From Gemmatimonadaceae bacterium (lineage in GTDB: Bacteria; Gemmatimonadota; Gemmatimonadetes; Gemmatimonadales; Gemmatimonadaceae): a stretch of DNA of 64,000 nt. Positions 4,425 to 24,900 of the stretch are shown in pieces. The notes beneath the pieces are model-generated. The model had not been told where the DNA came from. It did no database searches and saw only the letters and a list, made by a program, of their open reading frames with translations. The DNA lies in contig JAHBVS010000002.1 of assembly GCA_019637445.1 (NCBI GenBank), positions 558,001-622,000 of the forward strand. Reading direction: 5' to 3'. Made by a program: the position numbers and the translations under genes. Position 1 is the stretch's first letter. Each line of letters starts with the position of its first letter.

Positions 4425-7400
4425 CTACCGTCCGCCAGAGTGCCGGACGGCGCGTTGCAGGCTCTGGTAGCGCGCCTGCTCTTCGCCGTCTGCGAAGGGA
4501 TTCATCTGGTGTGTGGTAGGCATACACTTTGAGATGGACTCCTGCATCTGCGATCCAGTAACTCGAGGGCCTGCGTCACGCTTCGTCTTGTTCATGAGAT
4601 GCCCCTTCCACGGTGAGTCGCTGATGCCCATTACGTGACCGAACTCGTGTCCGGCCCCGCGGTGGAGCTCGTTTGTGTTCGCCACGGCAAGGAACCAGAT
4701 GTCGCCCCCTGCCGGCACTCCGAAGGTGTCCTTCCCGTGGCTCGAGCCCTGGTGATCGACACCTGCGCGATCTCTCTTGATCTTGACTTCTGGGCCGCCA
4801 CTGAAATCGATCGTAACGTTGTAGCCTCCTCGGCGGCCCTCCCAAGCGGCCCGAATACCTGCCTCCACCGCAGTCATGTCCGCGGGGGTCCAGTTCGGGC
4901 CTTCGAACGACAGCTGTGCGCGCAGCACAAGGTTGTTCCCGTTGAGCTTCATTTCGACGCAGAGTCCGAACGGATCGTTTGAGTTGACCGGGTCCCCACC
5001 CACATACCCGTACTGGTTGACCCCACCCGCCAGCCCGATCGGGTCGCGCTGCGTGAACCGACCCGACGCGGGGTCGTAGTACCGGTTCCGCATATAAATC
5101 ATACCCGATGCGTCCCGCTTGTTGTCAAGCAGGGACCCGAACCAGCCAAGGTCCACGACGTCGGGATAGCGAACCTCACCTCCCGGATACGCGCCCTCTT
5201 GCTTCCCTGGCCAATGGTAAGCCGTCATGGCCGTGTTGTTCAGATACCGGCCCATCTCGTAGCCGCCGCGGCCGCTCCGGATCGGAGAGAAGGCGGAGTG
5301 GCCCGACTTGCGCACGATGAGCGGGTCATCGATCCCCAGGGCGTGCACGTAGCGCACTTCCCCGAAGAAGGCGCCCGAGCCGCCCGCTACGGCATCGAGA
5401 GAATCCGCCGACATCGCCCAGTTGCCGGCACGACGGCGCTCGAGCAGGAGCTGATCTCCGTCCCAGTAGAACCGCTCGATTGCCTGCACGCACACGGCCG
5501 CTGTCGCAGGCACGGTGCCGGAGCAGGTCGTGACGCTGTCCTTGCGCGTCCGTACAAGCACGCGGCGGCCCAGTGCGTCGTAGCGATACTCCTGGATCGT
5601 GTGCCGCCCACTCTGCTGGCCGAACCAGCGTTCCACTTGGCGCAATCGATTCGACGAATCGTAGAAATGCCGCGACTGCGAACCACCCTCGAAGGTCGGC
5701 GTGACGTAGTCGAAGGAGCCAGTGAAGGTGACGGTCTGCATCACGCTTCCTTGCCGCGTGGTATTGCCCGCCTGGTCGTAGTAGTACGTGCTGTTGTCCA
5801 GCGAGGTCACCGCCGGCTGCTGATTGGGCTGCCTCTCTGCGCTCAAGGGATCCGTAGCAGAGCTCGCCAGGCGCTCAAAGCTGTAGAGGTAGTCGCGACG
5901 GCTCCGGTACGTGCTCCATCCCCGGTTGGAGTCGTGGGACATCATGTTGCCCAAGGGATCGAGCGAATACTCGTCGCTGTAGATGTTCCAGCCTCCGTAC
6001 GGCCGGTACTGCTCTCGGGCGATCAAAGCGCCGAAGCCATCGTAGTGCATGCGAGACGTGTCGGCATCCTCGGGCGCGAGGCCCGACGTGCGGCGCACCG
6101 TCTGCTTCCCGCGGGCGTCGTACTCGTAGTGGTTGTAGTAGACGCCGGCGATGGAACTCGAGTCGAGTCGCCCAAGCGAGCCGTAGAAGTACTGATCGGC
6201 CACGAGTCCAGCGACCTTCTGGCTGCGGAGCCGGCCCGCAGCGTCCCAGCTGAAGGTGACGGTGTCACCACCCGTCGCACCATTCGACTCAATCGTGCGC
6301 TCGAGCACCCCGAGCATCGGGTGGTATTGGTAGAGCTGCGTCGAGCCGGTGTTCATCGTGCGCTTGGTGCGCCTGCCGAGGATGTCGACCTCAAACGTGA
6401 GGCCGAGCCAATGCTGCGAGTACGCACTCGTGAGCGTATCGCTCGGCGCATACTGGCGGATGCGCAGTGTATCGGCCTTCAATGCCCCGTTCGCGTAGTA
6501 GCCCCTGGAGATCCTGGCGTCGCGGTTGTTGGCCGTCAGCATCCGGCCTGCGAGATCGTAGGAGAACGTCTCGACGTCACCTGGGAGCACGATGTCCGGC
6601 GACGTGCCTCCGCCGAGCAGGTTGGTCGGGAAGTAGGGGAAGGTCGACCACGCCGAGTCTGGAAAGACGCCGAGGAAGCAGAGTGACATGCAGTCCTGCT
6701 TTGGGCTGGTCACGGCGGGAGTCACGCGCGCGACGAGCTGGCCGCCTGCATCGTAGTAGCTCCTGACGATGTGCCCGCGCGAAGTCCGATGGCGCGTCAC
6801 GAGACCAGCGGGGTCGTAGGTGAACGTGTCGGGCCCCATGCCGTCCTCGCGCTTCGTCTTCACGCGCCTGGCCGCGTCGTACGTCCACGCAGTCTTGGCG
6901 ACCGTCGTGAGGACGCCGGCGGAAGTGCGACCCCGACGCACGATGCTGTCGACATTTCCCTCGAGGTCGTAGAAGGTATGGATCATCCGGCGTGCGGAGT
7001 CCGCACTGCCGGACAGGCTTGAATAGAGCAGCGAATAGGAGCTCGGGACGCTGACGGTGCGCGTGGAGTCGACGCGCCCGAGCACACTGCGATACGACGT
7101 CGTGCGCGCGAAACCGTCAAAGGACACCGTGTCCTCTCCCCAGACATTCCGCGTCACCGTGGTCGTCATCGGCGGCGTCTCAACCTCGGCGATGTTACCC
7201 AGCGTGGCGTCGTAGTCGTACGTCTCGGTCGGGCTGCCTGGCGAGGCCACCGAGGCGACGCGATGCTTGGCATCGTAGGTGAAGGTGACCTTCAGCGAGT
7301 CGTGCGGGCCGAGGCGGCGCCACAGGACCTTGGCGTAGGAGCCGTCGTAGCCAATGCGGGTCGTGTCGCCGAGCGGCGGCACGATCTGCGTGGGCAAGGT

Positions 7401-10073
7401 CCACTTGCTGTGCCACGTGATCTTGGTCCGCGCGCTGCTGTCGCTCGCGGTGAGCCCCGCAGCCTGTACCTGCGTGGCGAGCCCGCGGGTCGTGTCATAC
7501 CAGGCGCGCTGTTCGATCCCCATCGGGTCCACGATGCGGGTCACGAGCGCCGGAAATTTCCAGTGCCGCTCAATCCTGGTCCGGCCACCCAGCGGGTTCT
7601 GGACGCTGTCCGGCCCCCCGAAGCGATTGAGATGGAAGGTCGAGACGTCGATCAACCCGCCGCGCGGACCGTCCACGCGGGTGAGCGCGGATGCAACGGG
7701 GACGCCACCGAGAGGTGTGGAAGGGCCCCACCCGCAGGAGACGAGGCCACTTGTTGCGGCATGGCAGAACCTGACCTGGATGGCGCTGTCACCTGGCACG
7801 GCGACGGTCGTGGTCGTCACGGCACCGTGGGCGTCGTACGCGTAGGTGGTGCTGTCTCCCTTTCGGTTGAGTCGCTTCAGGGCTCGGCCGGTAGCGGCGT
7901 CGTAGGAGAACGCTATTGACGTTCCATCTGGGTCGGTGATGGTGTTGAGCAAAGAGTCGTTCTGAACATGACCAAATTGCGTAACGCGGGTCACACTGTC
8001 GGGAATATCCGAACGCTTGAGCGTCGTCGAAGAAAGAATGCGAGTAGTGGAATCGTATCGGAACCAGTACGCGACACTAATGGTCGAGCTCTCCACCGGC
8101 ACCGTGATCGAGTCGACTCGTGACACTCCGCCGAGAGTCGTCGGCAAGAACCGAGTAACATGTCCTTGGGCATTGACAGTGTGCGTGTGATGGCCGCTCG
8201 AGTTGAAGCGCACGTACGCACCGTTTGGCAGTCGTCGGCGCCAGTTGTGAGTGCCGCTGTGTAAACGCAGCGTGTCCGGTCGCGAGACTAGGTGTGCCAC
8301 GGTGTAGACTGAGTCCACGATGCGCTTGTACAAGCGCGTGCTACCATCACCGCCGACCCAGAACTTCGTGCTGTCGTTGACATGGATGATCTGTTCGAGC
8401 CCCTCAATCCACCAGCCGCGTCCATACGGGCTCTTGGCGCGGTTCACGATGGCCAACTCGCCCGAGGTCGTGGCCGTCGTGCTGGTCCCGTTGATGCGAG
8501 CCTCGAGGGAATACGTGTAGTAGCCCGTGGCCAGCGAGAGCGCCTCAGCATCCACTGGAATCGAGACCCGACATTCCACGTTGCGGCAGGACGAACTCCA
8601 GTAATACTTGCGAACGACGGGAGACTTGCCGGGAATCGTCAGCGTCATCATCACCGTGTCAGGCGTGGCGTGTCGCGTCGTGACGTTGGCGCTCACGAAG
8701 TACACAGGCCGCGCGTGCTGACTCAGGTAGACGAGGCGGGGCGCTCGGGTGCGTCCCATCGTCTGGATCGGCGCGAGCGAATGGGCCAGGCGGAGACTGC
8801 CGCACTCAACGCCCGCCGCATCGCCGGCGGCGTACATCAGACACTGGTCGCGCGAGACAGAGCTCTCTGGATTCAGGTTCGCTGTCGATACGAGGATTCC
8901 GGCGGTCCCACCAGCACCGCCATTCGGACCAACGGTGACTCCGGTATGGGCCGTGACGGTCGCCGCGCCGTGCCGCGCCGTGAGCGAGACGGCACCTGTC
9001 ACGAGCGTGTCTGAGCTGACGGCCGTGAGAGAGCCGACGGTGATCAGGGTCGAGGCGCCCGCTGCCAAGGTCGTCTGCGTAGGCGCGCTGCACGAGGCAG
9101 GCGTCACGACTGAAGCGTCGCACGCCCGGTCCAGGGCGACGACGGCACTCGATGACCCCAGGTTCTGCACCGTGAACGTCACGTTGAACGAGGTTCCGTT
9201 CCCCTTCGCGACAGTCGCAAGCGTCGGCGTCACAACCAAGTTGGCCGCGACGGGTGTCGGGGGGACGACGGCCACCGTCTGTGACCCGAATACACAGACC
9301 AAGGACGGCGTACTGCGGCAGATGGTCGCCGACACCGGCTTCGAGCCAAGCGAGTCGCCACGCACACGTACCTTCACCGTGTCTGGCGAGGTCCCCTTTC
9401 CGACCGCGGCGACGACGGTGCTCGTCAGCTTGGTGCAGGACCCGAGGCCACCGTAGCACTTCGTGGCGACCGTATCGTACGTCAGCGACGTCGAACCGTT
9501 GTTCCGCACGACGAACTTGACGACGACGCTGTCACCCAGCGTCGTCGTCAGCTGCTCGGCTGGGGCCTCGAGCTGCACCGGGTCTGGGCTCGGGGGCGCA
9601 TAGAAGATGTAGGCGGTTTCGTCGATGCACTCGTAGTACTGATTGCAGGCCTGGATCCGCACATCGTTCGCTCCGTGCAGGAGCTCGTTCGAGTTGGCCT
9701 CATTCCAGTTCACGAAGTAGGCGACGCCCGGACCTCCCCACATGCCGTCGCAGTTCTCGGCCGCACCGTCGGCAACGATGCCGCGAGAAGAGGTTACGGA
9801 AAGGCCTTGCAGATTCTCGCCGCAGATCGACACCGCGATCTGCGCGTTCGGGTCGTTCAGCGTCGAGCCGAAGGGGATCGAGGAGACGTAGAACGGAGGC
9901 GTGACGGCCTCCGTTGCGCCGATGCTTGGTGCGGACTCCGGTACCTCCACCGCGGCATCGGCCTCACGGGCTGGACCTGAGGAGAGTCCGGCCCACGCGG
10001 GCAGTGCAGCCAGAGCCACGACAATGGCCACACGTCGGCCAAGGGTGGGGATGCGGATTGGCGGAATCGTCAT
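4425..10073 (-). CDS. Secreted Rhs/YD-repeat polymorphic toxin with zinc-metalloprotease tip (expressed copy)
   Basis: About 1,880 residues from the ATG at 10073 (a GTG at 10121 gives 1,898). N-terminus: Sec signal (RRVAIVVALAALPAWAGL). Residues ~165-395 hold two CARDB-like beta domains (VVVKFVVRNNGSTSL; FNVTFTVQNLGSSS). From ~600 to ~1690 run YD repeats (YDAxGxL/TxYxYD type) building the Rhs shell. The core ends with MRNRYYDPASGRF, then TQRDPIGLAGG and NDPFGL, whose paired DPxG motifs are the site of Rhs autoproteolysis in studied members. The ~180-residue tip carries HEFGH (4635-4649), then GISD and GHLM, resembling a metzincin HExxHxxGxxH/D site with Met-turn. No PAAR or VgrG module, so not a T6SS type. 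Its core-end repeat is inverted relative to the array repeats at 20-34 kb. Confidence 0.93.
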   Translation of the reverse strand: MTIPPIRIPTLGRRVAIVVALAALPAWAGLSSGPAREADAAVEVPESAPSIGATEAVTPPFYVSSIPFGSTLNDPNAQIAVSICGENLQGLSVTSSRGIVADGAAENCDGMWGGPGVAYFVNWNEANSNELLHGANDVRIQACNQYYECIDETAYIFYAPPSPDPVQLEAPAEQLTTTLGDSVVVKFVVRNNGSTSLTYDTVATKCYGGLGSCTKLTSTVVAAVGKGTSPDTVKVRVRGDSLGSKPVSATICRSTPSLVCVFGSQTVAVVPPTPVAANLVVTPTLATVAKGNGTSFNVTFTVQNLGSSSAVVALDRACDASVVTPASCSAPTQTTLAAGASTLITVGSLTAVSSDTLVTGAVSLTARHGAATVTAHTGVTVGPNGGAGGTAGILVSTANLNPESSVSRDQCLMYAAGDAAGVECGSLRLAHSLAPIQTMGRTRAPRLVYLSQHARPVYFVSANVTTRHATPDTVMMTLTIPGKSPVVRKYYWSSSCRNVECRVSIPVDAEALSLATGYYTYSLEARINGTSTTATTSGELAIVNRAKSPYGRGWWIEGLEQIIHVNDSTKFWVGGDGSTRLYKRIVDSVYTVAHLVSRPDTLRLHSGTHNWRRRLPNGAYVRFNSSGHHTHTVNAQGHVTRFLPTTLGGVSRVDSITVPVESSTISVAYWFRYDSTTRILSSTTLKRSDIPDSVTRVTQFGHVQNDSLLNTITDPDGTSIAFSYDAATGRALKRLNRKGDSTTYAYDAHGAVTTTTVAVPGDSAIQVRFCHAATSGLVSCGWGPSTPLGGVPVASALTRVDGPRGGLIDVSTFHLNRFGGPDSVQNPLGGRTRIERHWKFPALVTRIVDPMGIEQRAWYDTTRGLATQVQAAGLTASDSSARTKITWHSKWTLPTQIVPPLGDTTRIGYDGSYAKVLWRRLGPHDSLKVTFTYDAKHRVASVASPGSPTETYDYDATLGNIAEVETPPMTTTVTRNVWGEDTVSFDGFARTTSYRSVLGRVDSTRTVSVPSSYSLLYSSLSGSADSARRMIHTFYDLEGNVDSIVRRGRTSAGVLTTVAKTAWTYDAARRVKTKREDGMGPDTFTYDPAGLVTRHRTSRGHIVRSYYDAGGQLVARVTPAVTSPKQDCMSLCFLGVFPDSAWSTFPYFPTNLLGGGTSPDIVLPGDVETFSYDLAGRMLTANNRDARISRGYYANGALKADTLRIRQYAPSDTLTSAYSQHWLGLTFEVDILGRRTKRTMNTGSTQLYQYHPMLGVLERTIESNGATGGDTVTFSWDAAGRLRSQKVAGLVADQYFYGSLGRLDSSSIAGVYYNHYEYDARGKQTVRRTSGLAPEDADTSRMHYDGFGALIAREQYRPYGGWNIYSDEYSLDPLGNMMSHDSNRGWSTYRSRRDYLYSFERLASSATDPLSAERQPNQQPAVTSLDNSTYYYDQAGNTTRQGSVMQTVTFTGSFDYVTPTFEGGSQSRHFYDSSNRLRQVERWFGQQSGRHTIQEYRYDALGRRVLVRTRKDSVTTCSGTVPATAAVCVQAIERFYWDGDQLLLERRRAGNWAMSADSLDAVAGGSGAFFGEVRYVHALGIDDPLIVRKSGHSAFSPIRSGRGGYEMGRYLNNTAMTAYHWPGKQEGAYPGGEVRYPDVVDLGWFGSLLDNKRDASGMIYMRNRYYDPASGRFTQRDPIGLAGGVNQYGYVGGDPVNSNDPFGLCVEMKLNGNNLVLRAQLSFEGPNWTPADMTAVEAGIRAAWEGRRGGYNVTIDFSGGPEVKIKRDRAGVDHQGSSHGKDTFGVPAGGDIWFLAVANTNELHRGAGHEFGHVMGISDSPWKGHLMNKTKRDAGPRVTGSQMQESISKCMPTTHQMNPFADGEEQARYQSLQRAVRHSGGR
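4983..5054 (-). repeat. Rhs core-end repeat, expressed copy (inverted relative to the array copies)
   Basis: 72 bases inside the Rhs gene, from ACGCAGCGCGACC to ACCCGGTCAAC read on the minus strand, matching the start of all eleven array cassettes almost base for base. Upstream of it the expressed gene encodes DPASGRF, which the array copies lack. Downstream it diverges at once (VNSNDPFGL here, VNFSDPFGL in the array). This is the only minus-strand copy in the window. Confidence 0.95.
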
Positions 10074-10162
10074 CGGCAACGCGTCCAGGCGAAGGGTGGA
10101 GGATTGCCGGACGACGTGCACGAAATGTGCCCGCCGTAACTATATGTGGTGAAAGGAGTTAC

Positions 10163-10264
10163 ATGACACGCTCGGCGCGCGTTCAGGTCGGTGGCACAGA
10201 GAAGGAAGAGCTTGTTGACGTTGGGTCGAGCCAGTTCTATCTTCTCACGCCCGAAGCGATGTAA
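10163..10264 (+). CDS. Possible 33-residue ORF with strong ribosome binding site
   Basis: The ATG at 10163 is preceded by AAAGGAG at 10152-10158, good spacing, in an A/T-richer stretch (TAACTATATG). It encodes a short peptide beginning MTRSARVQVGG and ending in LLTPEAM. No similarity recognised. It lies in the divergent region between the Rhs gene and the sigma-54 regulator. It could be a leader peptide or chance; the ribosome binding site is the only positive evidence. Confidence 0.3.
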   Translation: MTRSARVQVGGTEKEELVDVGSSQFYLLTPEAM

Positions 10265-10336: not shown

Positions 10337-11353
10337 ATGACCGATCGCGCCACCCCGTTTGGAAGCGTGAGCTCGGAGAGCTCCGGCCTCGACGCTCTCT
10401 TTCTCAGGTCGGAGGTCCCGTCCGTCCAGGAGGCGGTAGCGAGGCTGCGAGCCTTTGCACTCGCAGACGACCCCATCCTTCTCGAAGGCGAGACGGGAAC
10501 GGGTAAGTCGCACTTGGCAATCGCCGCGCACGAGTTCTCCCCCAGACGCCGCGGGCCCCGTTTTGATGTCTCGCTCAGCGGACTGGATCACGACCTCATG
10601 CACAGCCACCTCTTCGGGCACCGAAAAGGTGCCTTCACGGGCGCGACCTCGAATCACGATGGCCTGTTCGTACAGGCCCAGGGGGGCAGTCTGTTTATGG
10701 ACGAGATCGGACACGCGCAGCCACCGCTGCAGCGCGCCTTGCTCGACGTTGTCGAGAACCGGCGCGTTCTCCCGCTCGGATCGAAACAGTACGTGCCGAT
10801 GGAGTGTCGGATGCTGAGCGCGACGAACGTCCCCCTCGCGACGCTCGTGGCCAACGGGCAGTTCCTCGACGACCTGCGGTACCGCGTCTCACCGTTCGTG
10901 GTGAGACTGCCGAGCCTTCGTGAGCGCCAGCAGGACCTGCCCGACATCTTCCGCTGGTTCATGCAACGCCGGGCGGCCCTCTCGTACGCCCGGAGGCCCG
11001 CGCCTGCGCTGCATCCCGACGCAGCCCGCGTGGTGGCCGAATACACCTGGCCCGGAAACCTCCGAGAGGTCGCGGGGGTCGTCGCCCGCCTCCTCACGCT
11101 GCATCGCGAGGCGTCGGAGCTGAGCGCTGAGGTCGTCACGGAGGAGATTGCAGCTTCGGGGAGCGTCGCTCGCACTGCGGAACGCCCGATGGTTCCGCCG
11201 AGGCCGCCGAGCGGCGCAGCAACCGACGACGAAATCATCGCGGCGCTGGCGGCGTGCGGCGGGAAGCGCGACGTCGCGGCGAGCATGCTTGGCATCGGTC
11301 GCTCTACCCTGTTTCGGAGACTCAAGGCTTTGCGCAGCAAGCAGTCGGCGTGA
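10337..11353 (+). CDS. Sigma-54-dependent transcriptional activator (AAA+ enhancer-binding protein) without receiver domain
   Basis: 338 residues. The AAA+ domain shows Walker A GETGTGKS (~residues 50-57), the sigma-54 contact loop GAFTGA in HRKGAFTGATS, Walker B SLFMDEIGH and an arginine-finger region (DDLRYRVSPF). The C-terminus is a Fis-type helix-turn-helix (DVAASMLGIGRSTLFRRL). There is no N-terminal response-regulator or GAF domain, only ~30 residues, so activity may be set by expression or a partner protein. It lies directly upstream of a T2SS operon that has a sigma-54 promoter and clustered repeat boxes, its likely targets. Confidence 0.92.
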   Translation: MTDRATPFGSVSSESSGLDALFLRSEVPSVQEAVARLRAFALADDPILLEGETGTGKSHLAIAAHEFSPRRRGPRFDVSLSGLDHDLMHSHLFGHRKGAFTGATSNHDGLFVQAQGGSLFMDEIGHAQPPLQRALLDVVENRRVLPLGSKQYVPMECRMLSATNVPLATLVANGQFLDDLRYRVSPFVVRLPSLRERQQDLPDIFRWFMQRRAALSYARRPAPALHPDAARVVAEYTWPGNLREVAGVVARLLTLHREASELSAEVVTEEIAASGSVARTAERPMVPPRPPSGAATDDEIIAALAACGGKRDVAASMLGIGRSTLFRRLKALRSKQSA

Positions 11354-11365: not shown

Positions 11366-11422
11366 GGTCTCACTCTCGTCTCGTGCAGTCCCGTCGTGAG
11401 ACTGCAGTGAGACGGTGAGACC
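11366..11422 (+). promoter_or_regulatory. Clustered GTGAGAC boxes, probable activator binding sites
   Basis: GGTCTCAC at 11366-11373 (inverted) and GTGAGAC at 11396-11402, 11407-11413 and 11415-11421, the last extended to GTGAGACC and so the exact inverse of the first box. They lie 77-133 bases upstream of a sigma-54 type promoter, the usual enhancer position, and directly after the enhancer-binding protein gene. Confidence 0.65.
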
Positions 11423-11498
11423 GCGACCGCAGCGAACGGCAGTGAGTTCTCTCTAGCCGCACACACAAGACGAGCGACCTAATAGGCTACCGCCACGC

Positions 11499-11512
11499 GG
11501 CACACTTCGTGC
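11499..11512 (+). promoter_or_regulatory. Sigma-54 (RpoN) type promoter of the T2SS operon
   Basis: CGGCACACTTCGTGCA contains GG (11499-11500), exactly ten bases, then GC (11511-11512), matching the -24/-12 rule; the CGGCAC and TGCA elements are close to consensus. Transcription would start near 11524, almost at the GTG proposed for gspE (11526), so either the message is leaderless or gspE starts further in. Confidence 0.7.
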
Positions 11513-11525
11513 ACTTCCGAGGGTC

Positions 11526-12950
11526 GTGCCGACTGCACCTAACCATACCTCTGATTCCCAATTCGAGGCCCACGCCATCGCGCGTGAGTACTTGGTTGCG
11601 CATCGCGTCTGCCCCTTAAACATCGAGCCAGACGGAGCCCTCGCAGTGGCAGCGACCAGGGCCGCGAGCCTCGACTCGCTGGACGAGATCGGCGTCGAGT
11701 TCGGTCGCGAGGTCTGCGCCCGCGAAGTTGACGATGCGGAACTCGACCGCCTGATCGAGCAGTACGCCGCGAGCCTCCAGTCGGAAACCCACAGGGCCTC
11801 GACCGGCGCCGCGCAGGGTGCCGCAACCGACGTTCGCGATCAGGTCGAGGCGGCGCCCGTCGTGCGCTACGTCAACCTCCTGCTGCGCTTCGCCATCGAC
11901 CAGCGGGCGAGCGATGTGCACCTTGAACTCGGCCCCGAACAGCTTGCCGTTCGTGTACGCGTGGATGGATCGCTGCGGCCGGCGCCGGACGCGCCGCCGC
12001 ACTTCAGCAAGGCCGTCGTATCGCGCGTGAAGCTGCTGGCGGACCTCGACATCTCTGACGTGGCGCGGCCGCAGGACGGAAGAATGCGAATCCGCCTGGA
12101 CGACCGCGACTTGGACATCCGCGTCGGCACGCTGCCGAGCATGTTCGGCGAGAGTGTCGTCCTCCGAGTGCTCGATCGCGGGTCTGGTCCCGGAGAACTG
12201 CGTCAACTGGGAATGCCTCCGGAGATCGAGACGCGCGTTCGGCGAATCGTTGAGCGGCCTCACGGCCTGCTCCTCGTAACGGGACCCACAGGCAGCGGCA
12301 AGACTTCCACGCTCTACTCGGCGCTCCGGCTCCGCGACGCCAGTCGGGAGAAGCTGGTCACTGTGGAAGATCCCGTGGAGTATCGGCTGGCCGGAGTCAC
12401 CCAGGTTCCGGTGAACCGGTCGCAGGGCGTCACCTTCGCCGCGGCCCTGCGGTCAATCCTTCGTCAGGATCCAGACGTGATCCTGGTTGGCGAGATGCGC
12501 GATGCAGAAACCGCCGCGCTGGCGGTTCAGGCCGCACTCACCGGCCATCTCGTGCTGTCGACCTTGCATACGAACGATGCGGTGGCAGCGGTGCCGCGCC
12601 TGCTTGACCTCGGCGTGCCACCCTACCTGATCGCCGCCACGCTGCTTGCCGTGGTCGGTCAGCGGCTGGTTCGCCGCCCGTGCCCGTCCTGCCACGGAAC
12701 GACGCGCAAGGGCAGCTCCCGCTGTACCGCCTGCGCCGGCTCCGGATATCAGGGTCGCATTGGCCTCTTCGAGCTCTTGGAGCCTGACGATCGCTTTCGC
12801 GAGCGCATTTCGTCGCAGGCGAGCGTCTCAACGCTCCGCGAACTCGCGAAGCAAGTCGGATACGAACCACTCACGGTCGACGGAGAGCGCAAGGTCTCAA
12901 ACGGGCAGACAACTGCCGAGGAGGTGCAGCGTGTCGCCATGGCGGAGTAG
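11526..12950 (+). CDS. gspE: Type II secretion ATPase GspE
   Basis: 474 residues. Cytoplasmic secretion ATPase that drives pseudopilus assembly. Visible: N2-type domain (RASDVHLE ... VRVRVDG), Walker A GPTGSGKTS near residue 258, Asp box VTVEDPVEY, Walker B DPDVILVGEMRD, His box GHLVLSTLHTNDA, and a zinc-binding CPSCHG ... CTACAGSGYQGR element typical of GspE/PilB. The N1 domain is short. The GTG start lies just behind the sigma-54 promoter. First gene of the secretion operon; its 3' end overlaps gspG. Confidence 0.95.
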   Translation: MPTAPNHTSDSQFEAHAIAREYLVAHRVCPLNIEPDGALAVAATRAASLDSLDEIGVEFGREVCAREVDDAELDRLIEQYAASLQSETHRASTGAAQGAATDVRDQVEAAPVVRYVNLLLRFAIDQRASDVHLELGPEQLAVRVRVDGSLRPAPDAPPHFSKAVVSRVKLLADLDISDVARPQDGRMRIRLDDRDLDIRVGTLPSMFGESVVLRVLDRGSGPGELRQLGMPPEIETRVRRIVERPHGLLLVTGPTGSGKTSTLYSALRLRDASREKLVTVEDPVEYRLAGVTQVPVNRSQGVTFAAALRSILRQDPDVILVGEMRDAETAALAVQAALTGHLVLSTLHTNDAVAAVPRLLDLGVPPYLIAATLLAVVGQRLVRRPCPSCHGTTRKGSSRCTACAGSGYQGRIGLFELLEPDDRFRERISSQASVSTLRELAKQVGYEPLTVDGERKVSNGQTTAEEVQRVAMAE

Positions 12951-13386
12951 GGCGCGCCCCGGTTTCACGTTGGTCGAACTGCTGGTGGTCATCGCCATCA
13001 TCGCAACGCTCGCGAGCGTTGTCGCACCAAGCCTCTTCCGGAATGTGGGCGACGCGCGCGCGAGCGCAGCGAAGGCACAGATCCAGACGCTCGCGCTGGC
13101 GCTCGATACGTATCGACTCGATGCGTTCACCTACCCCACGAGCGCGCAAGGACTGCAGGCGCTGCGCGCAGACCCCGGTCCGGTGGGGGCCGGCTCCCGC
13201 TGGCGCGGGCCCTACCTGCAACAGGAGGTCCCGTTGGATCCTTGGGGCCGGCCCTTCCTCTACCGCTCCCCGGGGGTCGTGAACACCTCCTCCTATGACT
13301 TGTATTCTCTCGGGCGGGACGGTCTCGTCGGTGGGGAGGGCGAGGATGCCGATGTCACCTCGTGGAACGGCTCGGTGGATCGCTGA
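12931..13386 (+). CDS. gspG: Major pseudopilin GspG
   Basis: 151 residues from a GTG at 12931 with GAGGAGG at 12918-12924; it overlaps the gspE end by 20 bases. A short basic leader ending RPG is followed by FTLVELLVVIAIIATLASV, the class III prepilin peptidase site (cut after Gly, methylated Phe, Glu at +5) and helix. The C-terminal part has the GspG signature: TYPTSAQGLQAL, DPWGRPFLYRSPG, YDLYSLGRDG and a final acidic calcium-loop region (GEGEDADVTSWN). Main building block of the periplasmic pseudopilus. Confidence 0.95.
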   Translation: MSPWRSRARPGFTLVELLVVIAIIATLASVVAPSLFRNVGDARASAAKAQIQTLALALDTYRLDAFTYPTSAQGLQALRADPGPVGAGSRWRGPYLQQEVPLDPWGRPFLYRSPGVVNTSSYDLYSLGRDGLVGGEGEDADVTSWNGSVDR

Positions 13387-14576
13387 TGCAGGCCGCGGCG
13401 GCGTTTCGGTACACCGCGCTCCTGCCCTCAGGGGAACGCTGCAGCGGCGTCGTTCGGGCGCCGAACGAGGGAGCCGCCCGCGCGCGCCTCGCCGCGATGG
13501 GGACGTTGCCTGTTTCCCTCGTCCCCACGGACGCAGCGGACCTGCGGCGCGAGATGCCTGGCAGCGATGGCGCCGTCGGGCTGCGGCTGCTCGCGGACCT
13601 ACTGGCGTCAGGACTTCCGATCGAGGCAGCATTGGAGACGCTTGGCGCGCTTGCTCCGGCGACCTGGCTGGAGGCTCTTCCGGCCCTTCTCCAGGCCATC
13701 CGTGAGGGCGAGACGCTGGCGTCGGCCCTGACCCAGATGCCGAGGCCACTGGCGAGTTCTCTGATCGGTATCGTGCAGGCGGGCGAGGCCGCCGGATCGC
13801 TCGGCCCGTCGCTAATGCGAGCCGCCACGTACGCCGAGTCTCAGCAGGCGCGCGCCAAGGCACTGCGCGCGGCCCTGGCCTATCCAAGCATCGTCCTTGG
13901 GGTGGGCGTCGTCACCCTCGCGGTGCTCGTCCTCGCGGTGATCCCGCGATTTGCTTCGCTGCTTCTAGACATGGGTGCTCGGGTTCCTCGAGGCCTCGCG
14001 CTGCTCCTTGGCGCGGCGGACTTTCTGCGGTCGTACGGCGCCGTCGTCGTCATCGGTGCGGTCCTGCTGCTCGCGGCAGGTGAGCGACTGCTGAGGTCGC
14101 CCCAGCGCCGACGCCAGCTGCAGCGCCTGCTGCTCGCCGCGCCGATAGTCGGCCCGGTCATTCGCGCATCGCTTGATGCACGACTACTGGAGACGGTTGG
14201 GTCTGCGGTGGACGCTGGCGTTCCCCTTCGCAGAGCTCTCGAGATTGCCATCGACGCCGAGCGGCACCTGGAGCTCAGGCATCGGCTCGCCGCTGCGCGG
14301 GAGGCGGTGCTCGAGGGGCAGAGTCTTGGGCGCGCGTTTGAGCGATTCCACGTGATCGGTCCGGTGGCACTGACGCTGGTGGCCGCCGGCGAGCGCACGG
14401 GGCGCGTGTCTGTCTTCTGCCTGCGTGCCGCTGCGGTTCAGGCCGATGAGGCCGAGCGGCGCATTCGCGCGGCGCTTCGCTTCCTTGAGCCGGGTCTCAT
14501 CCTTGGGCTGGCGCTGGTCGTCGGGCTAGTCTCGTCCGCACTACTTCAGGCTGTGTATGCGGTACGACCGCAGTAA
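13386..14576 (+). CDS. gspF: Type II secretion inner-membrane platform protein GspF
   Basis: About 396 residues; the ATG at 13386 overlaps the gspG stop by one base. Two T2SSF domains: the first with LLADLLASGLPIEAALETLG and EAAGSLGPSLMRAA, the second with LETVGSAVDAGVPLRRALEIA and ERTGRVSVF. Hydrophobic segments lie at ~residues 165-195, 215-235 and at the C-terminus (LGLALVVGLVSSALLQAVY). It anchors the ATPase and pseudopilus in the inner membrane. A reading eight codons longer exists but is less likely. Confidence 0.94.
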   Translation: MQAAAAFRYTALLPSGERCSGVVRAPNEGAARARLAAMGTLPVSLVPTDAADLRREMPGSDGAVGLRLLADLLASGLPIEAALETLGALAPATWLEALPALLQAIREGETLASALTQMPRPLASSLIGIVQAGEAAGSLGPSLMRAATYAESQQARAKALRAALAYPSIVLGVGVVTLAVLVLAVIPRFASLLLDMGARVPRGLALLLGAADFLRSYGAVVVIGAVLLLAAGERLLRSPQRRRQLQRLLLAAPIVGPVIRASLDARLLETVGSAVDAGVPLRRALEIAIDAERHLELRHRLAAAREAVLEGQSLGRAFERFHVIGPVALTLVAAGERTGRVSVFCLRAAAVQADEAERRIRAALRFLEPGLILGLALVVGLVSSALLQAVYAVRPQ

Positions 14577-14862
14577 GACCGCGCGCCGCAGGCGCGGAGC
14601 CACGCTCGTGGAACTCGTTGTTGTCCTGCTAGTGCTTGGTCTCGTTCTGAGCTTGGTGACGCTGTCAATACCGGAAGCCTCGGGGCGCACTGATCACTCG
14701 GTGCGCGCCCAGTTGGAGGGAGATGCGCTGGCGAGCGGCCGGCCCCGCTCTGCGCTGATGGGCGACTCTTCGACGCCGACGCTCATCACAGCCTATCCTG
14801 ACGGCTTTGTTGTGACGGACTCTCTGGTCGGGCTGGGGCTGATCCCGGAGCCGACTCGATGA
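14557..14862 (+). CDS. gspH: Minor pseudopilin, GspH-like
   Basis: 101 residues. N-terminal prepilin signal RRRRG followed by ATLVELVVVLLVLGLVLSLV, with Glu at +5. The remainder is short, so only a small globular domain follows. It overlaps gspF by 20 bases and gspI by 4. Assignment as H rests on its position between F and I and on the prepilin motif; the C-terminal domain is too small for certainty. Confidence 0.75.
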   Translation: MRYDRSKTARRRRGATLVELVVVLLVLGLVLSLVTLSIPEASGRTDHSVRAQLEGDALASGRPRSALMGDSSTPTLITAYPDGFVVTDSLVGLGLIPEPTR

Positions 14863-15209
14863 ACATGCGCACGACGAGAAGCGGCGCGGCGCTGATCGAG
14901 GCCTTGGTCGCCATCGCGATCTTCGGTACTGCGGCTGTCGGCTGGATGGTGTTGGCGCGACAGTCCGGCCGTGCTGTCGTTGCCTTCGGTGCGCACGATC
15001 GGCTGATCCGCGAAGCCGATTCTGCGTTGGCGTTTGCGGCTGCAGCACCGCCCGACAGCCTGCTCGCCTTCGCAGCTGGCAGGCAATTCGGCCGTGTGGT
15101 TGTGCGCAGCCACGAGCTTGCTGGAGGCCTCGTGCGTCTCGACGTGGCTAGTGAGGATGGCTTGGCATTGCTCTCAACCATCGTGCTGCCTGAACGAGGC
15201 GGCGAATGA
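14859..15209 (+). CDS. gspI: Minor pseudopilin, GspI-like
   Basis: 116 residues. Prepilin leader MNMRTTRSG followed by AALIEALVAIAIFGTAAVGW, with Glu at +5 of the mature protein. The small C-terminal part contains LLAFAAGRQFGRVVV. GspI normally nucleates the pseudopilus tip with J and K, which follow here. It overlaps both neighbours by 4 bases. Confidence 0.75.
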   Translation: MNMRTTRSGAALIEALVAIAIFGTAAVGWMVLARQSGRAVVAFGAHDRLIREADSALAFAAAAPPDSLLAFAAGRQFGRVVVRSHELAGGLVRLDVASEDGLALLSTIVLPERGGE

Positions 15210-15736
15210 AGGACCGCCGCAGCGGGTTCACCGTTCTCGAGCTGGCGATTGCACTGTCGCTCACGGCCATGTTGCTCTTGACTGCCGTGACCTCGCTCGA
15301 CGGTCTTCGCCGACTCACGACGGTCACGCAGCAACGCGCGGTGCAACTCAGCGAGTTCGCGATCGGATACCACGTGCTCCGCGACCTGCTGGGTACGACG
15401 CAGGTCGGGCTGGCAAAGTCCGACCGGTTCTCCGGTGATTCGCGCAGTGTCTCCGTCCTTGCGCTGTGCCGCACAGCCGGCGGATGGCGCGAGCGCTGCC
15501 GCGCCTCGATCAGCCTATCTCCGAATGGCGAGCACACGCGGGTGTCGTGGAGCAGCGGCCGCGGGACGCCGCAGGGCCTGTTTGACGTCGCCGGCATCGC
15601 TGAGTTCCGATTCAGCGATCCGGGTGGCGCCGGTGCTGGCTGGCAGTCGTCCTGGGGCACCGGCACGGCTGCGCCCCGCCTTGTGGCTCTGGTCGCCTCC
15701 AGCGACACCATGTTCTTCAGCGTCGGCAGTCGATGA
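15206..15736 (+). CDS. gspJ: Minor pseudopilin, GspJ-like
   Basis: 176 residues. Leader MKDRRSG, then FTVLELAIALSLTAMLLLTAV: prepilin peptidase site, Phe +1, Glu +5. The rest is beta-rich with a cysteine pair (ALCRTAGGWRERC). Position between I and K and size fit GspJ. 4-base overlaps with both neighbours show tight translational coupling. Confidence 0.78.
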   Translation: MKDRRSGFTVLELAIALSLTAMLLLTAVTSLDGLRRLTTVTQQRAVQLSEFAIGYHVLRDLLGTTQVGLAKSDRFSGDSRSVSVLALCRTAGGWRERCRASISLSPNGEHTRVSWSSGRGTPQGLFDVAGIAEFRFSDPGGAGAGWQSSWGTGTAAPRLVALVASSDTMFFSVGSR

Positions 15737-16656
15737 AGCGCCGCAGCCGCCGGAGAGCAGGCGCCGCTTTGGTCACGGTGCTCTGGGTGGTCTCGATGAT
15801 GGCCGTTGCGACGGCAGCGGCGGTCAGTGATGCACGTCGGTTCACGGACGCGTCGTCAAGCCGGGACCTCTTGCTGGCTGCTCATTGGGAGCTTCGCGGG
15901 TGCCTCGCCGTCGTCAGAGCCGAACTGCACGTCGCGCTGCGGGACGGCGCTTCACTTGAAGCTGCCGTCCGGCGCGTTGCTGATGGGCGCGGGGCGCCGA
16001 CGCTTCGAGCTGCGCGGACCTGCGATGTGTCGTTCCAGCCTGGCGGGGTCTCGCTTCCACACGACCTGCAGGACGAGTTCGCGCTCGCCACGTATTTCAA
16101 TGTGCTTGGGTACGGGTCGCGATCGGTCGACTTTCGGGATGCACTGTTGGACTGGACCGACACGGACGAGCGGCCGCGGGCGCGAGGGGCAGAGAGAAGC
16201 TGGTACCGTCGCGCCGGTCGAGTGGGGCCGAGGAATGCAGCTGCGGCCTCGGTTGCTGAGTTGCGCCTCGTCGCGGGCTTGGAGCTGCTTCCGGACAGTG
16301 TGTTGGAAGGCCTCATCGCTCGCGATGCGTACGTGAGCCTGAACCACGCGCCGCAAGCAGTGATCGAGGCGCTTCCGGGAATTGGGCCGCGGCTAGCCGC
16401 CCGGGTGGTGGCACGGCGCCTCAGCGGGCGACCGTTGAGAAGCGCGCTGGAGCTTGAAGAGCTGGTTGCGCCCCAGGAGCGAGAGGAGCTTGAACGAGCG
16501 TGGCCCGCCCTCCTCGCCGTCGCGGTCGCAGCGCCGGAATCCTGGTTGATCCGAATGAGAATCCCGGGAGTGGGCGGACGTGCCGATGTACAGGCAAGCG
16601 CACGCGTCGTGCTGTCAGGGCACGGCACTCACGTTCTCGAGTGGGTTCCCGAATGA
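15733..16656 (+). CDS. gspK: Minor pseudopilin GspK
   Basis: 307 residues. Prepilin-like leader RRRAG followed by AALVTVLWVVSMMAVATAAAV; as is characteristic of GspK, Glu +5 is replaced (Val). The large periplasmic part includes a helix-hairpin-helix region (LNHAPQAVIEALPGIGPRLAARVV) typical of K. It caps the pseudopilus tip complex. The C-terminal region (IRMRIPGVGGRADVQASARVVL) fits the family. Confidence 0.88.
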   Translation: MKRRSRRRAGAALVTVLWVVSMMAVATAAAVSDARRFTDASSSRDLLLAAHWELRGCLAVVRAELHVALRDGASLEAAVRRVADGRGAPTLRAARTCDVSFQPGGVSLPHDLQDEFALATYFNVLGYGSRSVDFRDALLDWTDTDERPRARGAERSWYRRAGRVGPRNAAAASVAELRLVAGLELLPDSVLEGLIARDAYVSLNHAPQAVIEALPGIGPRLAARVVARRLSGRPLRSALELEELVAPQEREELERAWPALLAVAVAAPESWLIRMRIPGVGGRADVQASARVVLSGHGTHVLEWVPE

Positions 16657-17828
16657 GTGCTCCCGCTCTGGCGCTCACCGTTCGCGCGCAGCACCTCTGC
16701 GCGGCGGCCTTCCGAGATGGTTCGCCCACGGCGCACTGGGCGGCGAGTCACCACTTCCGCTCTACCGAGGAGCTGGAAACGGCGGCGACGAACCTCTTGA
16801 GGAACGCTGCCACGCAGATCGGCAAAGGCTTCGAGGTTCTGCTCTCGGTCGGGCCCAACTACAGCCGCCTCAAGCGCGTCGAGCACGTGCCGGCGACCGT
16901 CATGGATACGGAGCTCAGCACCGCCCTCAGCGAGAACCGCGCCCGGTTCTTTCTCGGGCCTGCGGCCCAGTGGAGCCTCTTGGGCTGGCGCCGTCACGAG
17001 GGACAGCTCTGGGTGGGCGTCGTCGATCCGGCGGTGCTTGAGGCCGTCCTCGGAGCCGCGAATCGCGTTCGCGTTGCTGTCCGCGTGTGCGTTCCAGCGG
17101 TCTGCGCAGTGGCTGCGGTCTCTCCGGACGGCGCACTCGAGTGGAGTGACGGTACCAGAGTCTCCGCCATCGTTGTTCGGGGCGGGCGCGTTACGCGCAT
17201 TCAAGCACTCCGGCAGGTATCGGCGGAGATTGACGGGTCCACGGAGGTCGGAATGGACGACCTGCGCGGAATCGCAAGCGCCGTCGCGATCGGAGCGCCG
17301 TGCAAGTTTCCGGCGAAGGAGCGCCGGCGCAATCGCAGGGAGCGCTTCGTTCGCTCCGCTGCGACTGCGGCTTCGGTGGTACTGCTTGGAGTGGCCGCGG
17401 TGGGCCCTTATGCCTGGCACACAGCGCGGGTGCGCGCAGCGGCTACCTCGCGCTCACTGATCGCCGACTCTGTGGACTACGCCATCCGCGCAGCGGCAGG
17501 TGCACGGGCCGAACGCGAAGACCTTGAGGCGATCTCGTCGTTCCTTTCGAGTTCCGAGGAGCGGCGGCTCGCGATGCTCGCGTTCGTCGAAGCGCTCCCA
17601 AGCGGTGCGGCCCTGGCCGCGTTGCGAGTAGACGCGACCGGGGTGACAGCGACCGTCGTGGCCCCTGAGTCCTTGGACGTCCTCGACGCGATCGCGCGAT
17701 CCACTGCCTTGCAGGACGTAGTGCCCATCGGTGGGTTGAGCAGCGAATCTCGGGACGGAGCGCGCTTCCAGCGAGTCGTCGTCACCGCGCGCCGCAGTCT
17801 CGGCAGCGAGGGAACCGATGAGCCGTGA
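16653..17828 (+). CDS. gspL: Assembly protein GspL / PilM-PilN-like fusion
   Basis: About 391 residues from the ATG at 16653, overlapping the gspK stop by 4 bases; the frame is open further upstream but those codons are inside gspK. The N-terminal ~260 residues look like the actin-like cytoplasmic domain of GspL/PilM. A transmembrane segment (AATAASVVLLGVAAVGPYAW) follows, then a periplasmic ferredoxin-like PilN-type domain. It links the ATPase to GspM and the pseudopilus. Identity is inferred from architecture and operon place. Confidence 0.75.
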   Translation: MSAPALALTVRAQHLCAAAFRDGSPTAHWAASHHFRSTEELETAATNLLRNAATQIGKGFEVLLSVGPNYSRLKRVEHVPATVMDTELSTALSENRARFFLGPAAQWSLLGWRRHEGQLWVGVVDPAVLEAVLGAANRVRVAVRVCVPAVCAVAAVSPDGALEWSDGTRVSAIVVRGGRVTRIQALRQVSAEIDGSTEVGMDDLRGIASAVAIGAPCKFPAKERRRNRRERFVRSAATAASVVLLGVAAVGPYAWHTARVRAAATSRSLIADSVDYAIRAAAGARAEREDLEAISSFLSSSEERRLAMLAFVEALPSGAALAALRVDATGVTATVVAPESLDVLDAIARSTALQDVVPIGGLSSESRDGARFQRVVVTARRSLGSEGTDEP

Positions 17829-18393
17829 ACGTCGAGTGTTGGCCCTTGGTGCCGCTGCGATCGCACTCATCGTCGGTCTGGGCCGCGGCCTCCCGCGGTT
17901 GCTCGCCATGGAGCGTACGGCGAAAGCAGATGCGCTACGACTGATGAATGCGCTCGAGACCGAGAAGGCGTTGCTCGCTGAGCACTCCGCTCGACCTACC
18001 GTCGCCGCGTCCGCAGATGAACTCGTCGCGCTTCGTCATCGCCTAGTGCGCGCCTCCTCGCCCCTCGCTGCAGCCGCGCTGGTCCAACGCGACCTTGCAG
18101 CGGCGGCTCGCGTGGCGGGGATTGAACTGACGGGATCGTCAGCGGATGCCGACCCCGCGTTCCTCAATCGGATCGACACGGTTGGCGTCCAGCTCACGGC
18201 TCTCGGTTCGGCAAGTCGCTTGGCGCATTGGCTAGTGTTGCTGACTCCGAAGGACGCTCTGGTGCGCGTTCGGGAGCTCACCATCACACAGTCCGACGTT
18301 CACATCGCTGCGTCCGCCGAAGCCGTGCTGCACATCTCCGTCGTCGTTGAGGCACTGGTGGTCGCCGAGTCTGAGCGCGAGGCCGGCCAGTGA
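17818..18393 (+). CDS. gspM: Assembly protein GspM-like (PilO-like)
   Basis: 191 residues. A single N-terminal membrane helix (LALGAAAIALIVGLGRGLP) is followed by a coiled-coil-like stretch (LMNALETEKALLAEHS) and a periplasmic alpha/beta domain, the architecture of GspM/PilO. It follows gspL with an 11-base overlap and precedes the GspC-like gene. No sequence signature; assigned by topology and order. Confidence 0.7.
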   Translation: MSRERRVLALGAAAIALIVGLGRGLPRLLAMERTAKADALRLMNALETEKALLAEHSARPTVAASADELVALRHRLVRASSPLAAAALVQRDLAAAARVAGIELTGSSADADPAFLNRIDTVGVQLTALGSASRLAHWLVLLTPKDALVRVRELTITQSDVHIAASAEAVLHISVVVEALVVAESEREAGQ

Positions 18394-18842
18394 GAAGCGC
18401 CTACCGCAAGCCGGCTATCGGCGCGCTCATCTGCCTTATTGCCGCTTCGCTCAGGATGTGGAGCGCCGTTTCGGAGGGCGGCCTTGGTATCGATCGCCCC
18501 GCGGAGTCCAAGGAGCGTGTTGACAGCACACGTGCAGAGGCCGGACCCTGGATCCGCGGCCGCGATCCGTTTCGCCTCAGTCCACAGGTGTCTGCGTCAG
18601 AGCAGGAGGACGCGGACGCCGGGCCGCCGCGGTCGGACTTCGACCTGACCGTGCTTGCCGTCGCCGGCGGCTCGCCCTGGCGCGCCGTTGTGCGGTCCCA
18701 GTCGCTCGGGATCACCTCCCGGGTCGTGTCAGTCGGTGATTCGATCGGCCCCGCCGTCGTCGAGATCATCTCAGGCAAAGGCGTGGTGCTGCGGGGTCGA
18801 GATAGCACCCGAGCGGTCCCAATCGTGCGGAGGGGCCTGTGA
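18390..18842 (+). CDS. gspC: GspC/PilP-like periplasmic connector
   Basis: 150 residues. A short hydrophobic N-terminal segment (IGALICLIAASLRMW), a proline/acid-rich linker, then a small beta domain (FDLTVLAVAGGSPWRAVV ... VVSVGDSIGPAVVEIISGKGVVLR) matching the homology-region domain of GspC or PilP, which connects the inner-membrane platform to the secretin. It is directly followed by the secretin gene with a 4-base overlap, as expected for a partner. Confidence 0.75.
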   Translation: MRSAYRKPAIGALICLIAASLRMWSAVSEGGLGIDRPAESKERVDSTRAEAGPWIRGRDPFRLSPQVSASEQEDADAGPPRSDFDLTVLAVAGGSPWRAVVRSQSLGITSRVVSVGDSIGPAVVEIISGKGVVLRGRDSTRAVPIVRRGL

Positions 18843-20287: not shown

Positions 20288-20335
20288 GGGCGCAGGTCTG
20301 CTTGCGAAGGTGGCGCGAGACGGGCCAGTTTGTTG

Positions 20336-20439
20336 GGCCCCGCCACGCAGCGCGACCCGATTGGGCTGGCGGGTGGGGTCAACCAGTACGGATATGTGGG
20401 CGGGGATCCGGTCAACTTCTCGGATCCGTTTGGGCTGTG
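20336..20439 (+). repeat. Rhs core-end repeat, array copy 1
   Basis: Starts GGCCCCGCCACGCAGC and encodes GPATQRDPIGLAGG, then VNFSDPFGLC. 49 bases after the gspD stop. The repeat is in frame with tip 1; opposite orientation to 4983-5054. Confidence 0.95.
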
Positions 20440-20914
20440 CGAGAAGCCCAATGAGAATGGGAAGTGCCCCGGTGGTCTGTCGGTTCGCCAATGGCGACAG
20501 GTCGAATATGCAGCGGAGAACAACATGAGCGCCGAGGCAGCGGGTGCGGTGCGAGGGCTTCTTCACAGCGGCAATATCAGCCCCAGTGATGGGGAGCGAC
20601 CACTGCCGTCCAACGCGGCGGGAGGCGTCTCGAGGTCCGAGCAAGGGACGGTTGTGATCAACGTGAACTTCTCGGGTGATCTCGTTAAGGACGTCCATTA
20701 CTCGGGCAGCGTGTTCGATGCGCCTGCCATCATGCTCGCAGAGACTTTGATGCACGAGACCAAACATGTGATAGACCTCAAGAGCATGGACGCTTCCCAG
20801 AAGGCTGCTGTGTTCACGAAGGACAGCCCGGAGAACAGGGCTCACGAGGCCGCGGCGGAGAAGTACGCGCGCGACAATGCGTGCAACAAGGCGGCGGGCT
20901 GGCCATGCAAGTGA
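20336..20914 (+). CDS. Silent Rhs tip, cassette 1: zincin-type metalloprotease
   Basis: The frame opens within the repeat and runs ~192 codons; there is no ribosome binding site or credible start (a TTG at 20330 is the nearest). Past the repeat the tip has VVINVNFSGDL, then LMHETKHVIDL with an HExxH zinc site (HETKH, 20753-20767), and a downstream AHEAAAEKYARD helix that could supply the third ligand. Predicted zinc protease released from an Rhs core once fused to one. The paired lipoprotein immunity gene suggests a periplasmic target. Confidence 0.75.
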   Translation, partial: GPATQRDPIGLAGGVNQYGYVGGDPVNFSDPFGLCEKPNENGKCPGGLSVRQWRQVEYAAENNMSAEAAGAVRGLLHSGNISPSDGERPLPSNAAGGVSRSEQGTVVINVNFSGDLVKDVHYSGSVFDAPAIMLAETLMHETKHVIDLKSMDASQKAAVFTKDSPENRAHEAAAEKYARDNACNKAAGWPCK

Positions 20915-21459: not shown

Positions 21460-21505
21460 GTGCGACGAAGGCGCGAAAGCGTTAGGCCGATTGGGGGCCT
21501 CCGCT

Positions 21506-21525
21506 GAGCAACCAACACGTTGCTC
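21506..21525 (+). terminator. Small hairpin after immunity gene 1
   Basis: GAGCAAC (21506-21512), six-base loop, GTTGCTC (21519-21525): a perfect 7-bp stem in the spacer between cassettes 1 and 2. No long T tract follows, so termination is uncertain. No equivalent is found in the other spacers. Confidence 0.35.
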
Positions 21526-21579
21526 TCCATTGTAGCATTACCGCTATAGCCGGCTCGGCGGATACGATGAGCCGGTCCG

Positions 21580-23884: not shown

Positions 23885-23913
23885 GATAACCGCTTTGGCG
23901 TTGGTGCCCTTCA

Positions 23914-24429: not shown

Positions 24430-24460
24430 ATCGAGAGCTCAGTCCAGGAGAGTAGCCACC

Positions 24461-24823: not shown

Positions 24824-24900
24824 GTTCGAGTGTAACTGAGAGAGAGGTCAAAGGCGCCGCGCGACGAGCGCGCAACGGGTGGCGGCTGCTGGCGTAGCTG

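What the first reader, a model, noticed from the sequence alone, without database searches (positions are those of the whole stretch)
11366..11512. Sigma-54 control module for the secretion operon
An enhancer-binding protein with intact GAFTGA but no receiver domain is followed by four GTGAGAC boxes (one inverted) and a GG-N10-GC promoter 77 bases further on. This predicts regulated, possibly stress- or stage-dependent T2SS production, with the activator not under a partner kinase by standard phosphorylation.
Basis: partly seen in the sequence, partly recalled or inferred. Interest (0 to 1): 0.58.

Follow-up and report, generated by a model that had tools for sequence, protein, structure and literature searches.

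The report
Sigma-54 switch for an Rhs-toxin exporter
A bacterium that carries an arsenal of Rhs-type toxin genes appears to switch on the type II secretion machine beside them with a dedicated sigma-54 activator and its own set of DNA boxes, a layout that recurs in related genomes with different boxes each time.

Summary
A 338-aa sigma-54 activator with GAFTGA and no receiver (10337-11353) is followed by four GTGAGAC boxes (11367-11421), a -24/-12 element (GG 11499, GC 11511-11512) and a T2SS operon starting at GTG 11526. The layout recurs: eight loci (window included) in six genera of the same family carry a receiverless activator of this clade beside gspE. Seven of eight have GG-N10-GC ending 13-15 nt before the gspE start; 307 of 9609 ATG/GTG codons do. 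Box sequence differs by locus, but in seven of eight a box block lies 65-79 bp before the promoter. Those seven transcripts are predicted to be leaderless. New context: the window is an Rhs polymorphic-toxin locus. A divergent 1882-aa Rhs gene has a near-identical promoter (GGCACATTTCGTGC), as does a second Rhs gene; GGCACANNTCGTGC occurs exactly three times in the 3.35-Mb genome, at these three genes. Eleven orphan Rhs cassettes and an integrase follow the operon. Best reading: a PspF-like, phosphorylation-independent activator co-induces a Sec-exported Rhs toxin and its T2SS. Signal, DNA binding and start site are untested. New variant of a known kind.

The parts
10337..11353 (+). EBP1: receiverless sigma-54 activator (AAA+ with GAFTGA, AAA lid, Fis-type HTH)
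11367..11373 (-). box 1, GTGAGAC on the minus strand
11378..11384 (-). degenerate box ACGAGAC (2 mismatches), 11 bp from box 1
11396..11402 (+). box 2, GTGAGAC
11407..11413 (+). box 3, GTGAGAC, 11 bp from box 2
11415..11421 (+). box 4, GTGAGAC
11498..11513 (+). -24/-12 promoter CGGCACACTTCGTGCA of the T2SS operon; predicted +1 about 11524
   Evidence: conserved in relatives
11526..12950 (+). gspE, GTG start 2 nt after the predicted +1 (only start codon in its open frame upstream of the conserved part)
12934..20287 (+). rest of the T2SS operon: gspG, gspF, pseudopilins, gspK, L/M-like, gspD; all 10 consecutive gene pairs from gspE to gspD overlap as the longest open frames
10117..10132 (-). near-identical -24/-12 promoter GGGCACATTTCGTGCA of the divergent Rhs gene; predicted +1 about 10106
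4425..10073 (-). Rhs1: 1882-aa Rhs-repeat protein with a signal-peptide-like N terminus (read by eye) and an Rhs core followed by a variable C terminus
10886..10907 (.). dyad GTCTCAC-N8-GTGAGAC inside the EBP1 gene; possible extra enhancer, may be chance
10243..10248 (-). single GTGAGA site about 112 bp upstream of the Rhs1 promoter
20288..34323 (+). eleven orphan Rhs C-terminal cassettes, open frames starting in a shared core-end sequence
34780..35703 (-). tyrosine recombinase (Phage_integrase) at the end of the cassette array

Best explanation
EBP1 is a sigma-54 activator without a cis-acting sensor. It binds the GTGAGAC boxes just behind its own gene, assembles there, and by looping remodels sigma-54 RNA polymerase waiting at 11498-11513. 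This starts a message whose 5' end lies about 2 nt before the gspE start codon, so the T2SS operon is read from a (nearly) leaderless mRNA. The divergent Rhs gene has the same promoter and is probably induced by the same activator from the same or nearby sites (a GTGAGA at 10243, the dyad at 10886-10907, or the main block 1.2 kb away). The outcome is coordinated production of a Sec-exported Rhs toxin and the T2SS that would carry it across the outer membrane. Since EBP1 has no receiver, control must act on its amount or through a partner protein in trans, as PspA does on PspF or HrpV on HrpS. Shown: gene content, domains, box cluster, promoter motif, conservation of the layout, and near-identity of the three promoters. 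Inferred: DNA binding, start site, leaderless translation, co-regulation of Rhs, Rhs as T2SS cargo, trans control.
For: Eight loci (window included) in six genera of one family have a receiverless EBP of this clade before gspE; EBP identity to the window is only 33-40%, so the shared layout is not recent copying. In 7 of these 8 a GG-N10-GC element ends 13-15 nt before the gspE start (14,14,14,15,14,15,13); 307 of 9609 ATG/GTG codons in ten loci do so. The genome's second T2SS also has one, 14 nt before a GTG. Post-EBP repeat clusters: 5 of 9 clade EBPs reach p<=0.005 against 2 of 71 other EBPs (72 were run, one, L135, being clade member L153). In seven of the eight T2SS loci and before Rhs2 the box block lies 65-79 bp before GG. 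GGCACANNTCGTGC: three exact copies in 3.35 Mb, at T2SS1, Rhs1 and Rhs2. GTGAGA-type boxes also lie between the second receiverless EBP and Rhs2. RpoN present.
Against: No expression, binding or secretion data. Box clusters could not be recognised at L104, and at L105/L149 only through a CACTTNCG-type pair 21-22 bp apart conserved between these two. At L151 a gene is inserted and the promoter is not at the -14 position. GTGAGAC boxes also occur between a receiver-bearing PilR-like EBP and pilA in relative G010, so the box is not specific to this EBP type; the own-genome PilR-like EBP has none nearby. Rhs1 has no box cluster of its own within 200 bp. 125 of 179 family genomes lack Rhs hits and G010 has the T2SS module but no Rhs hit (78% complete). 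Leaderless non-AUG starts are reported as inefficient in E. coli (PMC3616915, passages). The exact promoter pattern was written after seeing the three copies.
Confidence: 0.72

Rival explanations
1. EBP1 controls only the T2SS operon. The Rhs promoters are sigma-54 promoters served by other activators, and the T2SS is a general secretion machine that merely sits beside the Rhs genes.
For: In G069 and G079 the Rhs gene has its own EBP directly upstream; own Rhs2 follows EBP2; Rhs1 has no box cluster of its own within 200 bp.
Against: Near-identical promoter core in T2SS1, Rhs1 and Rhs2; GTGAGA half-sites at both EBP1 and EBP2; 7 of 20 GTGAGA hexamers of the 64-kb window lie in the 1.4 kb between the Rhs1 and gspE starts.
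Confidence: 0.3
2. A different EBP (for example a PilR-type response regulator) binds the GTGAGAC boxes, so the operon does answer to a kinase.
For: GTGAGAC/GTCTCAC boxes lie between a PilR-like EBP and pilA in G010.
Against: No GTGAGA cluster near the own-genome PilR-like EBP or the other receiver-bearing EBPs scanned (8 scanned; one has three scattered sites); the boxes change with the adjacent receiverless EBP from locus to locus.
Confidence: 0.12
3. The repeats are a transcription terminator or another regulator's sites, and GG-N10-GC is a chance match.
For: The motif is common genome-wide; boxes 1 and 4 can pair as a stem (sequence).
Against: No T-run follows; conserved promoter-to-start spacing in 7 of 8 loci; conserved box-to-promoter spacing.
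Confidence: 0.06
4. The operon is sigma-54 dependent, but the real start site or gspE start lies elsewhere and the mRNA has a normal leader with a Shine-Dalgarno sequence.
For: GAGG (window) and GGAGG (L104) lie just before the start codon (sequence); leaderless non-AUG starts are weak in E. coli.
Against: In window, L104 and L149 only one start codon is available upstream of the conserved region; the spacing is fixed at 13-15 nt in 7 loci with both ATG and GTG.
Confidence: 0.25

Closest known systems
PspF and HrpR/HrpS (bEBPs lacking a cis-regulatory domain, regulated in trans by PspA or HrpV; PMC7057263, passages)
   Same: AAA+ with GAFTGA plus HTH, no N-terminal regulatory domain; HrpRS serves a secretion system
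   Different: EBP1 scores far below the PspF equivalog cut-off (172.4 against 443.55 bits); no PspA- or HrpV-like partner was found or searched for; target is a T2SS/Rhs locus
Sfa2 / VasH (EBPs encoded inside T6SS clusters that co-activate machine and toxins; PMC8855297, abstract and passages)
   Same: EBP gene inside a secretion locus, RpoN-dependent, machine and toxin islands co-induced, EBP site may lie more than 1 kb away
   Different: T2SS rather than T6SS; Sfa2 has an N-terminal GAF domain, EBP1 has none
NorR G266D (GAFTDA) variant (PMC2941729, passages)
   Same: GA[FY]TDA is present in six of the eight T2SS-linked EBPs of the clade; in NorR this change keeps sigma-54 activation and escapes repression by the regulatory domain
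   Different: Window EBP1 has GAFTGA; GAFTDA is also common in longer, receiver-bearing-size EBPs here, so it is not a mark of this clade
Rhs polymorphic toxin systems, many assigned to T2SS export (PMC3482391, passages)
   Same: Rhs repeat protein with variable C terminus and stand-alone C-terminal cassettes; XerC/D near polyimmunity loci noted there
   Different: The word sigma54 does not occur in its held text; a dedicated sigma-54 switch shared with an adjacent T2SS is not described in the passages I saw

Membership tests
sigma-54 enhancer-binding protein | PF00158 AAA+ domain above cut-off with GAFTGA L1 loop, Walker A/B | tested here: met
sigma-54 enhancer-binding protein | ATP-dependent open complex formation with sigma-54 RNAP | not testable with these tools
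   needs purified protein
PspF-type bEBP without cis-regulatory domain | no receiver, GAF or PAS domain N-terminal to AAA+ | tested here: met
   (8 of 8 clade members show no such domain)
PspF itself (TIGR02974) | equivalog score above 443.55 bits | tested here: not met
   172.4 bits
PspF-type bEBP without cis-regulatory domain | protein partner that inhibits in trans | not tested
   no candidate was searched for
sigma-54 promoter | GG-N10-GC with GGCAC / TGC context | tested here: met
   conserved in relatives
sigma-54 promoter | mapped start about 12 nt after GC, rpoN dependence | not testable with these tools
   needs RNA
type II secretion system | gspE, gspF, gspG, gspK and gspD secretin in one operon | tested here: met
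   GspE, GspF, GspK and GspD score below their NCBIfam equivalog cut-offs, GspG above; Pfam domains above cut-off
Rhs polymorphic toxin | RHS repeats plus Rhs-associated core and variable C terminus | tested here: met
Sfa2/VasH-type activator | encoded in a T6SS cluster | tested here: not met
   the cluster is a T2SS

The most novel reading that the evidence does not exclude
A lineage of bacteria carries self-contained sigma-54 'ignition modules' - a sensorless activator, a private enhancer word that changes from locus to locus, and a leaderless sigma-54 promoter - that switch on an Rhs toxin and its T2SS exporter together, so that several toxin systems in one genome can be addressed separately while the C-terminal toxin cassette is exchanged by a neighbouring integrase.
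Probability: 0.35. Interest if true: 0.78.

Novelty: new variant of a known kind. Interest (0 to 1): 0.6.

Why it matters
T2SS operons are not usually thought of as having a built-in sigma-54 activator (own knowledge; searches listed no report of it in the open-access library). Tying a T2SS and an Rhs toxin to one switch makes 'which machine exports this Rhs' a testable question in a poorly studied lineage. The locus-to-locus change of box sequence with a fixed geometry offers a natural series for reading the DNA code of Fis-type activators, and the fixed promoter-to-start spacing predicts a set of leaderless sigma-54 messages that one 5'-end experiment can confirm or kill.

Tried and rejected
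Regulon by boxes: GTGAGACNNNNGTGAGAC occurs exactly twice in the genome; the second copy, behind an ilvE-like gene (my reading), overlaps the next start codon and I saw no -24/-12 element there, so I set it aside as chance. Regulon by motif: the general sigma-54 pattern is not enriched. Close relatives of EBP1 in named genomes: 4 distant EBPs only. Phylum-wide: 7 of 395 sampled genomes carry the EBP clade at E<=1e-92, all in the same family (G010 and G079, known members, are not among the seven listed). GAFTDA as a mark of the clade: rejected, common elsewhere. Own T2SS2 and L072 were meant as negative controls: T2SS2 turned out positive (14 nt spacing), L072 negative at its likely start. G013 has a clade EBP but no T2SS next to it. 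Terminator reading: no T-run. The family name is an inference: the sizes of G016 and of single-contig G022/G048/G103 fit Gemmatirosa and Gemmatimonas as I recall them; no call names them.

Full report
What is there. The window is G000:C2:558001-622000 of a 3.35-Mb genome with one rpoN. The activator EBP1 (10337-11353) has the sigma-54 AAA+ domain, lid and Fis-type HTH and nothing else. Thirteen bases after its stop begins a 55-bp block with four exact GTGAGAC boxes, one inverted; a degenerate inverted box at 11378 makes an 11-bp pair with the first, mirrored by the 11-bp pair 11396/11407. Seventy-seven bases on is CGGCACACTTCGTGCA, and 14 nt after its GC the gspE GTG. Genes E, G, F, pseudopilins, K, L/M-like and D follow, every consecutive pair overlapping as the longest open frames.

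More than chance. Single boxes are at background (9 against 10.8 expected), but the cluster is not (0 of 2000 shuffles; 10 of 2000 for the 4-fold 7-mer). A -24/-12 match alone means little in this genome. The decisive evidence is comparative.

Relatives. A profile of the first five EBPs was run over the 179 genomes held for the family, and neighbourhoods were checked by tblastn with the window's T2SS proteins. Eight loci including the window carry a clade EBP next to gspE: window, L071 (G069), L104 (G029), L105 (G032), L106 (G010), L149 (G082), L151 (G079), L153 (G138), from six genera (window and L071 share one, L105 and L149 another). A ninth clade member (G013) has no T2SS beside it. EBPs are 33-40% identical to EBP1. 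In 7 of 8 a GG-N10-GC ends 13-15 nt before the gspE start codon; the eighth, L151, has a gene inserted and no such spacing. By the same rule 307 of 9609 ATG/GTG codons pass. I chose the gspE starts knowing the question, but in window, L104 and L149 only one start codon is possible. The own genome's second T2SS also has a 14-nt spacing; the EBP-less paralogue in G069 (L072) does not at its likely start.

Boxes. They differ by locus: GTGAGAC (window), GTGTTCC/GGAACAC (L071), TGTCGC/GCGACA (L106), TGTAGCGCTACA twice (L151), GTTGCGCGCAAC and GTTGCGCAAC (L153), a CACTTNCG-type pair 21-22 bp apart kept between L105 and L149. L104 shows no clear cluster. Formal test: 5 of 9 clade regions reach p<=0.005, against 2 of 71 regions after other EBPs. 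Main block to GG: 77 (window), 65 (L071), 66 (L151), 74 (L105) and 74 (L149) bp, and 68 bp before Rhs2, as printed; 79 and 68 bp for L106 and L153 if one isolated downstream half-site in each is left out. Variable word plus fixed geometry is what one expects if each activator reads its own boxes.

Rhs context. The gene divergent from EBP1 is an Rhs protein (PF05593, Rhs core) with a signal-peptide-like start at 10073 (signal peptide read by eye). Its promoter GGCACATTTCGTGC differs from that of the T2SS in one base. Rhs2 (C2:233213) has GGCACACCTCGTGC behind the second receiverless EBP, with GTGAGA boxes between. The pattern GGCACANNTCGTGC has three exact copies in the genome, these three, and 30 with one mismatch; about one exact copy would be expected from the one-mismatch number. 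G069 shows the same idea: two Rhs genes with GGCAC(A/G)CTCGATGC, one of them directly behind a second receiverless EBP. Rhs cores occur in 54 of 179 family genomes and in 8 of the 9 genomes with a clade EBP (a tenth genome searched there, G028, has no confirmed clade member and had none).

Mechanism. Activator bound to the box block, DNA looping to sigma-54 polymerase, ATP-driven opening: established for bEBPs (PMC7057263, passages). With no cis domain, EBP1 would be controlled in trans or by its amount, as PspF and HrpRS are (same source). The predicted +1 at 11524 leaves a 2-nt leader; in 7 loci the leader is 1-3 nt if +1 lies 12 nt after the GC (convention recalled, not measured). In S. meliloti all leaderless starts were AUG and non-AUG is said to be inefficient in E. 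coli (PMC3616915, passages), which speaks against the four GTG cases (window, L104, L106, T2SS2).

Relation to known systems. It works like Sfa2/VasH, which sit in T6SS clusters and co-activate machine and toxins (PMC8855297, abstract and passages), and is built like PspF/HrpRS. It is a member of neither family by the tests in the table. Searches for EBP with T2SS, Gemmatimonas with T2SS and sigma54, Rhs with T2SS and sigma54, and Rhs with Gemmatimonadota (listings only unless stated) listed nothing that describes this arrangement; the library holds open-access papers only.

Noticed in passing
window 20288-34323 and 34780-35703: Eleven orphan Rhs C-terminal cassettes in a row, each beginning abruptly with a shared GCCCCGCCACGCAGCGCGACC-type stretch (Rhs1 has GTTCACGCAGCGCGACC at the same point), 1.0-2.3 kb apart, ending at a tyrosine recombinase: looks like a site-specific toxin-cassette array.
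   Followed up: partly
G000:C2:232000-251900 (L156, L070): Second complete system in the same genome: receiverless EBP2, Rhs2 with the same promoter core, inverted cassettes, second T2SS.
   Followed up: partly
L156 about 1106-1153: 14-bp inverted repeat CTTCAGCGTGAGAT ... ATCTCACGCTGAAG spanning the EBP2 stop codon, containing GTGAGA half-sites.
   Followed up: no
L071 14039-15094 and L157 1-300 (G069:C4): A second receiverless EBP at the end of the T2SS operon directly before an Rhs gene, with a long imperfect palindrome in its 3' end.
   Followed up: partly
L013 2380-2730 of the reverse complement (G010:C452): GTGAGAC/GTCTCAC boxes and TGGCCCACCCGTTGCC between a PilR-like EBP and pilA.
   Followed up: partly
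window 10886-10907: Dyad GTCTCAC-N8-GTGAGAC inside the EBP1 coding region.
   Followed up: partly
L071 3653-4048 (minus strand): A gspG-like gene stands inverted upstream of the activator in G069, outside the T2SS operon.
   Followed up: no
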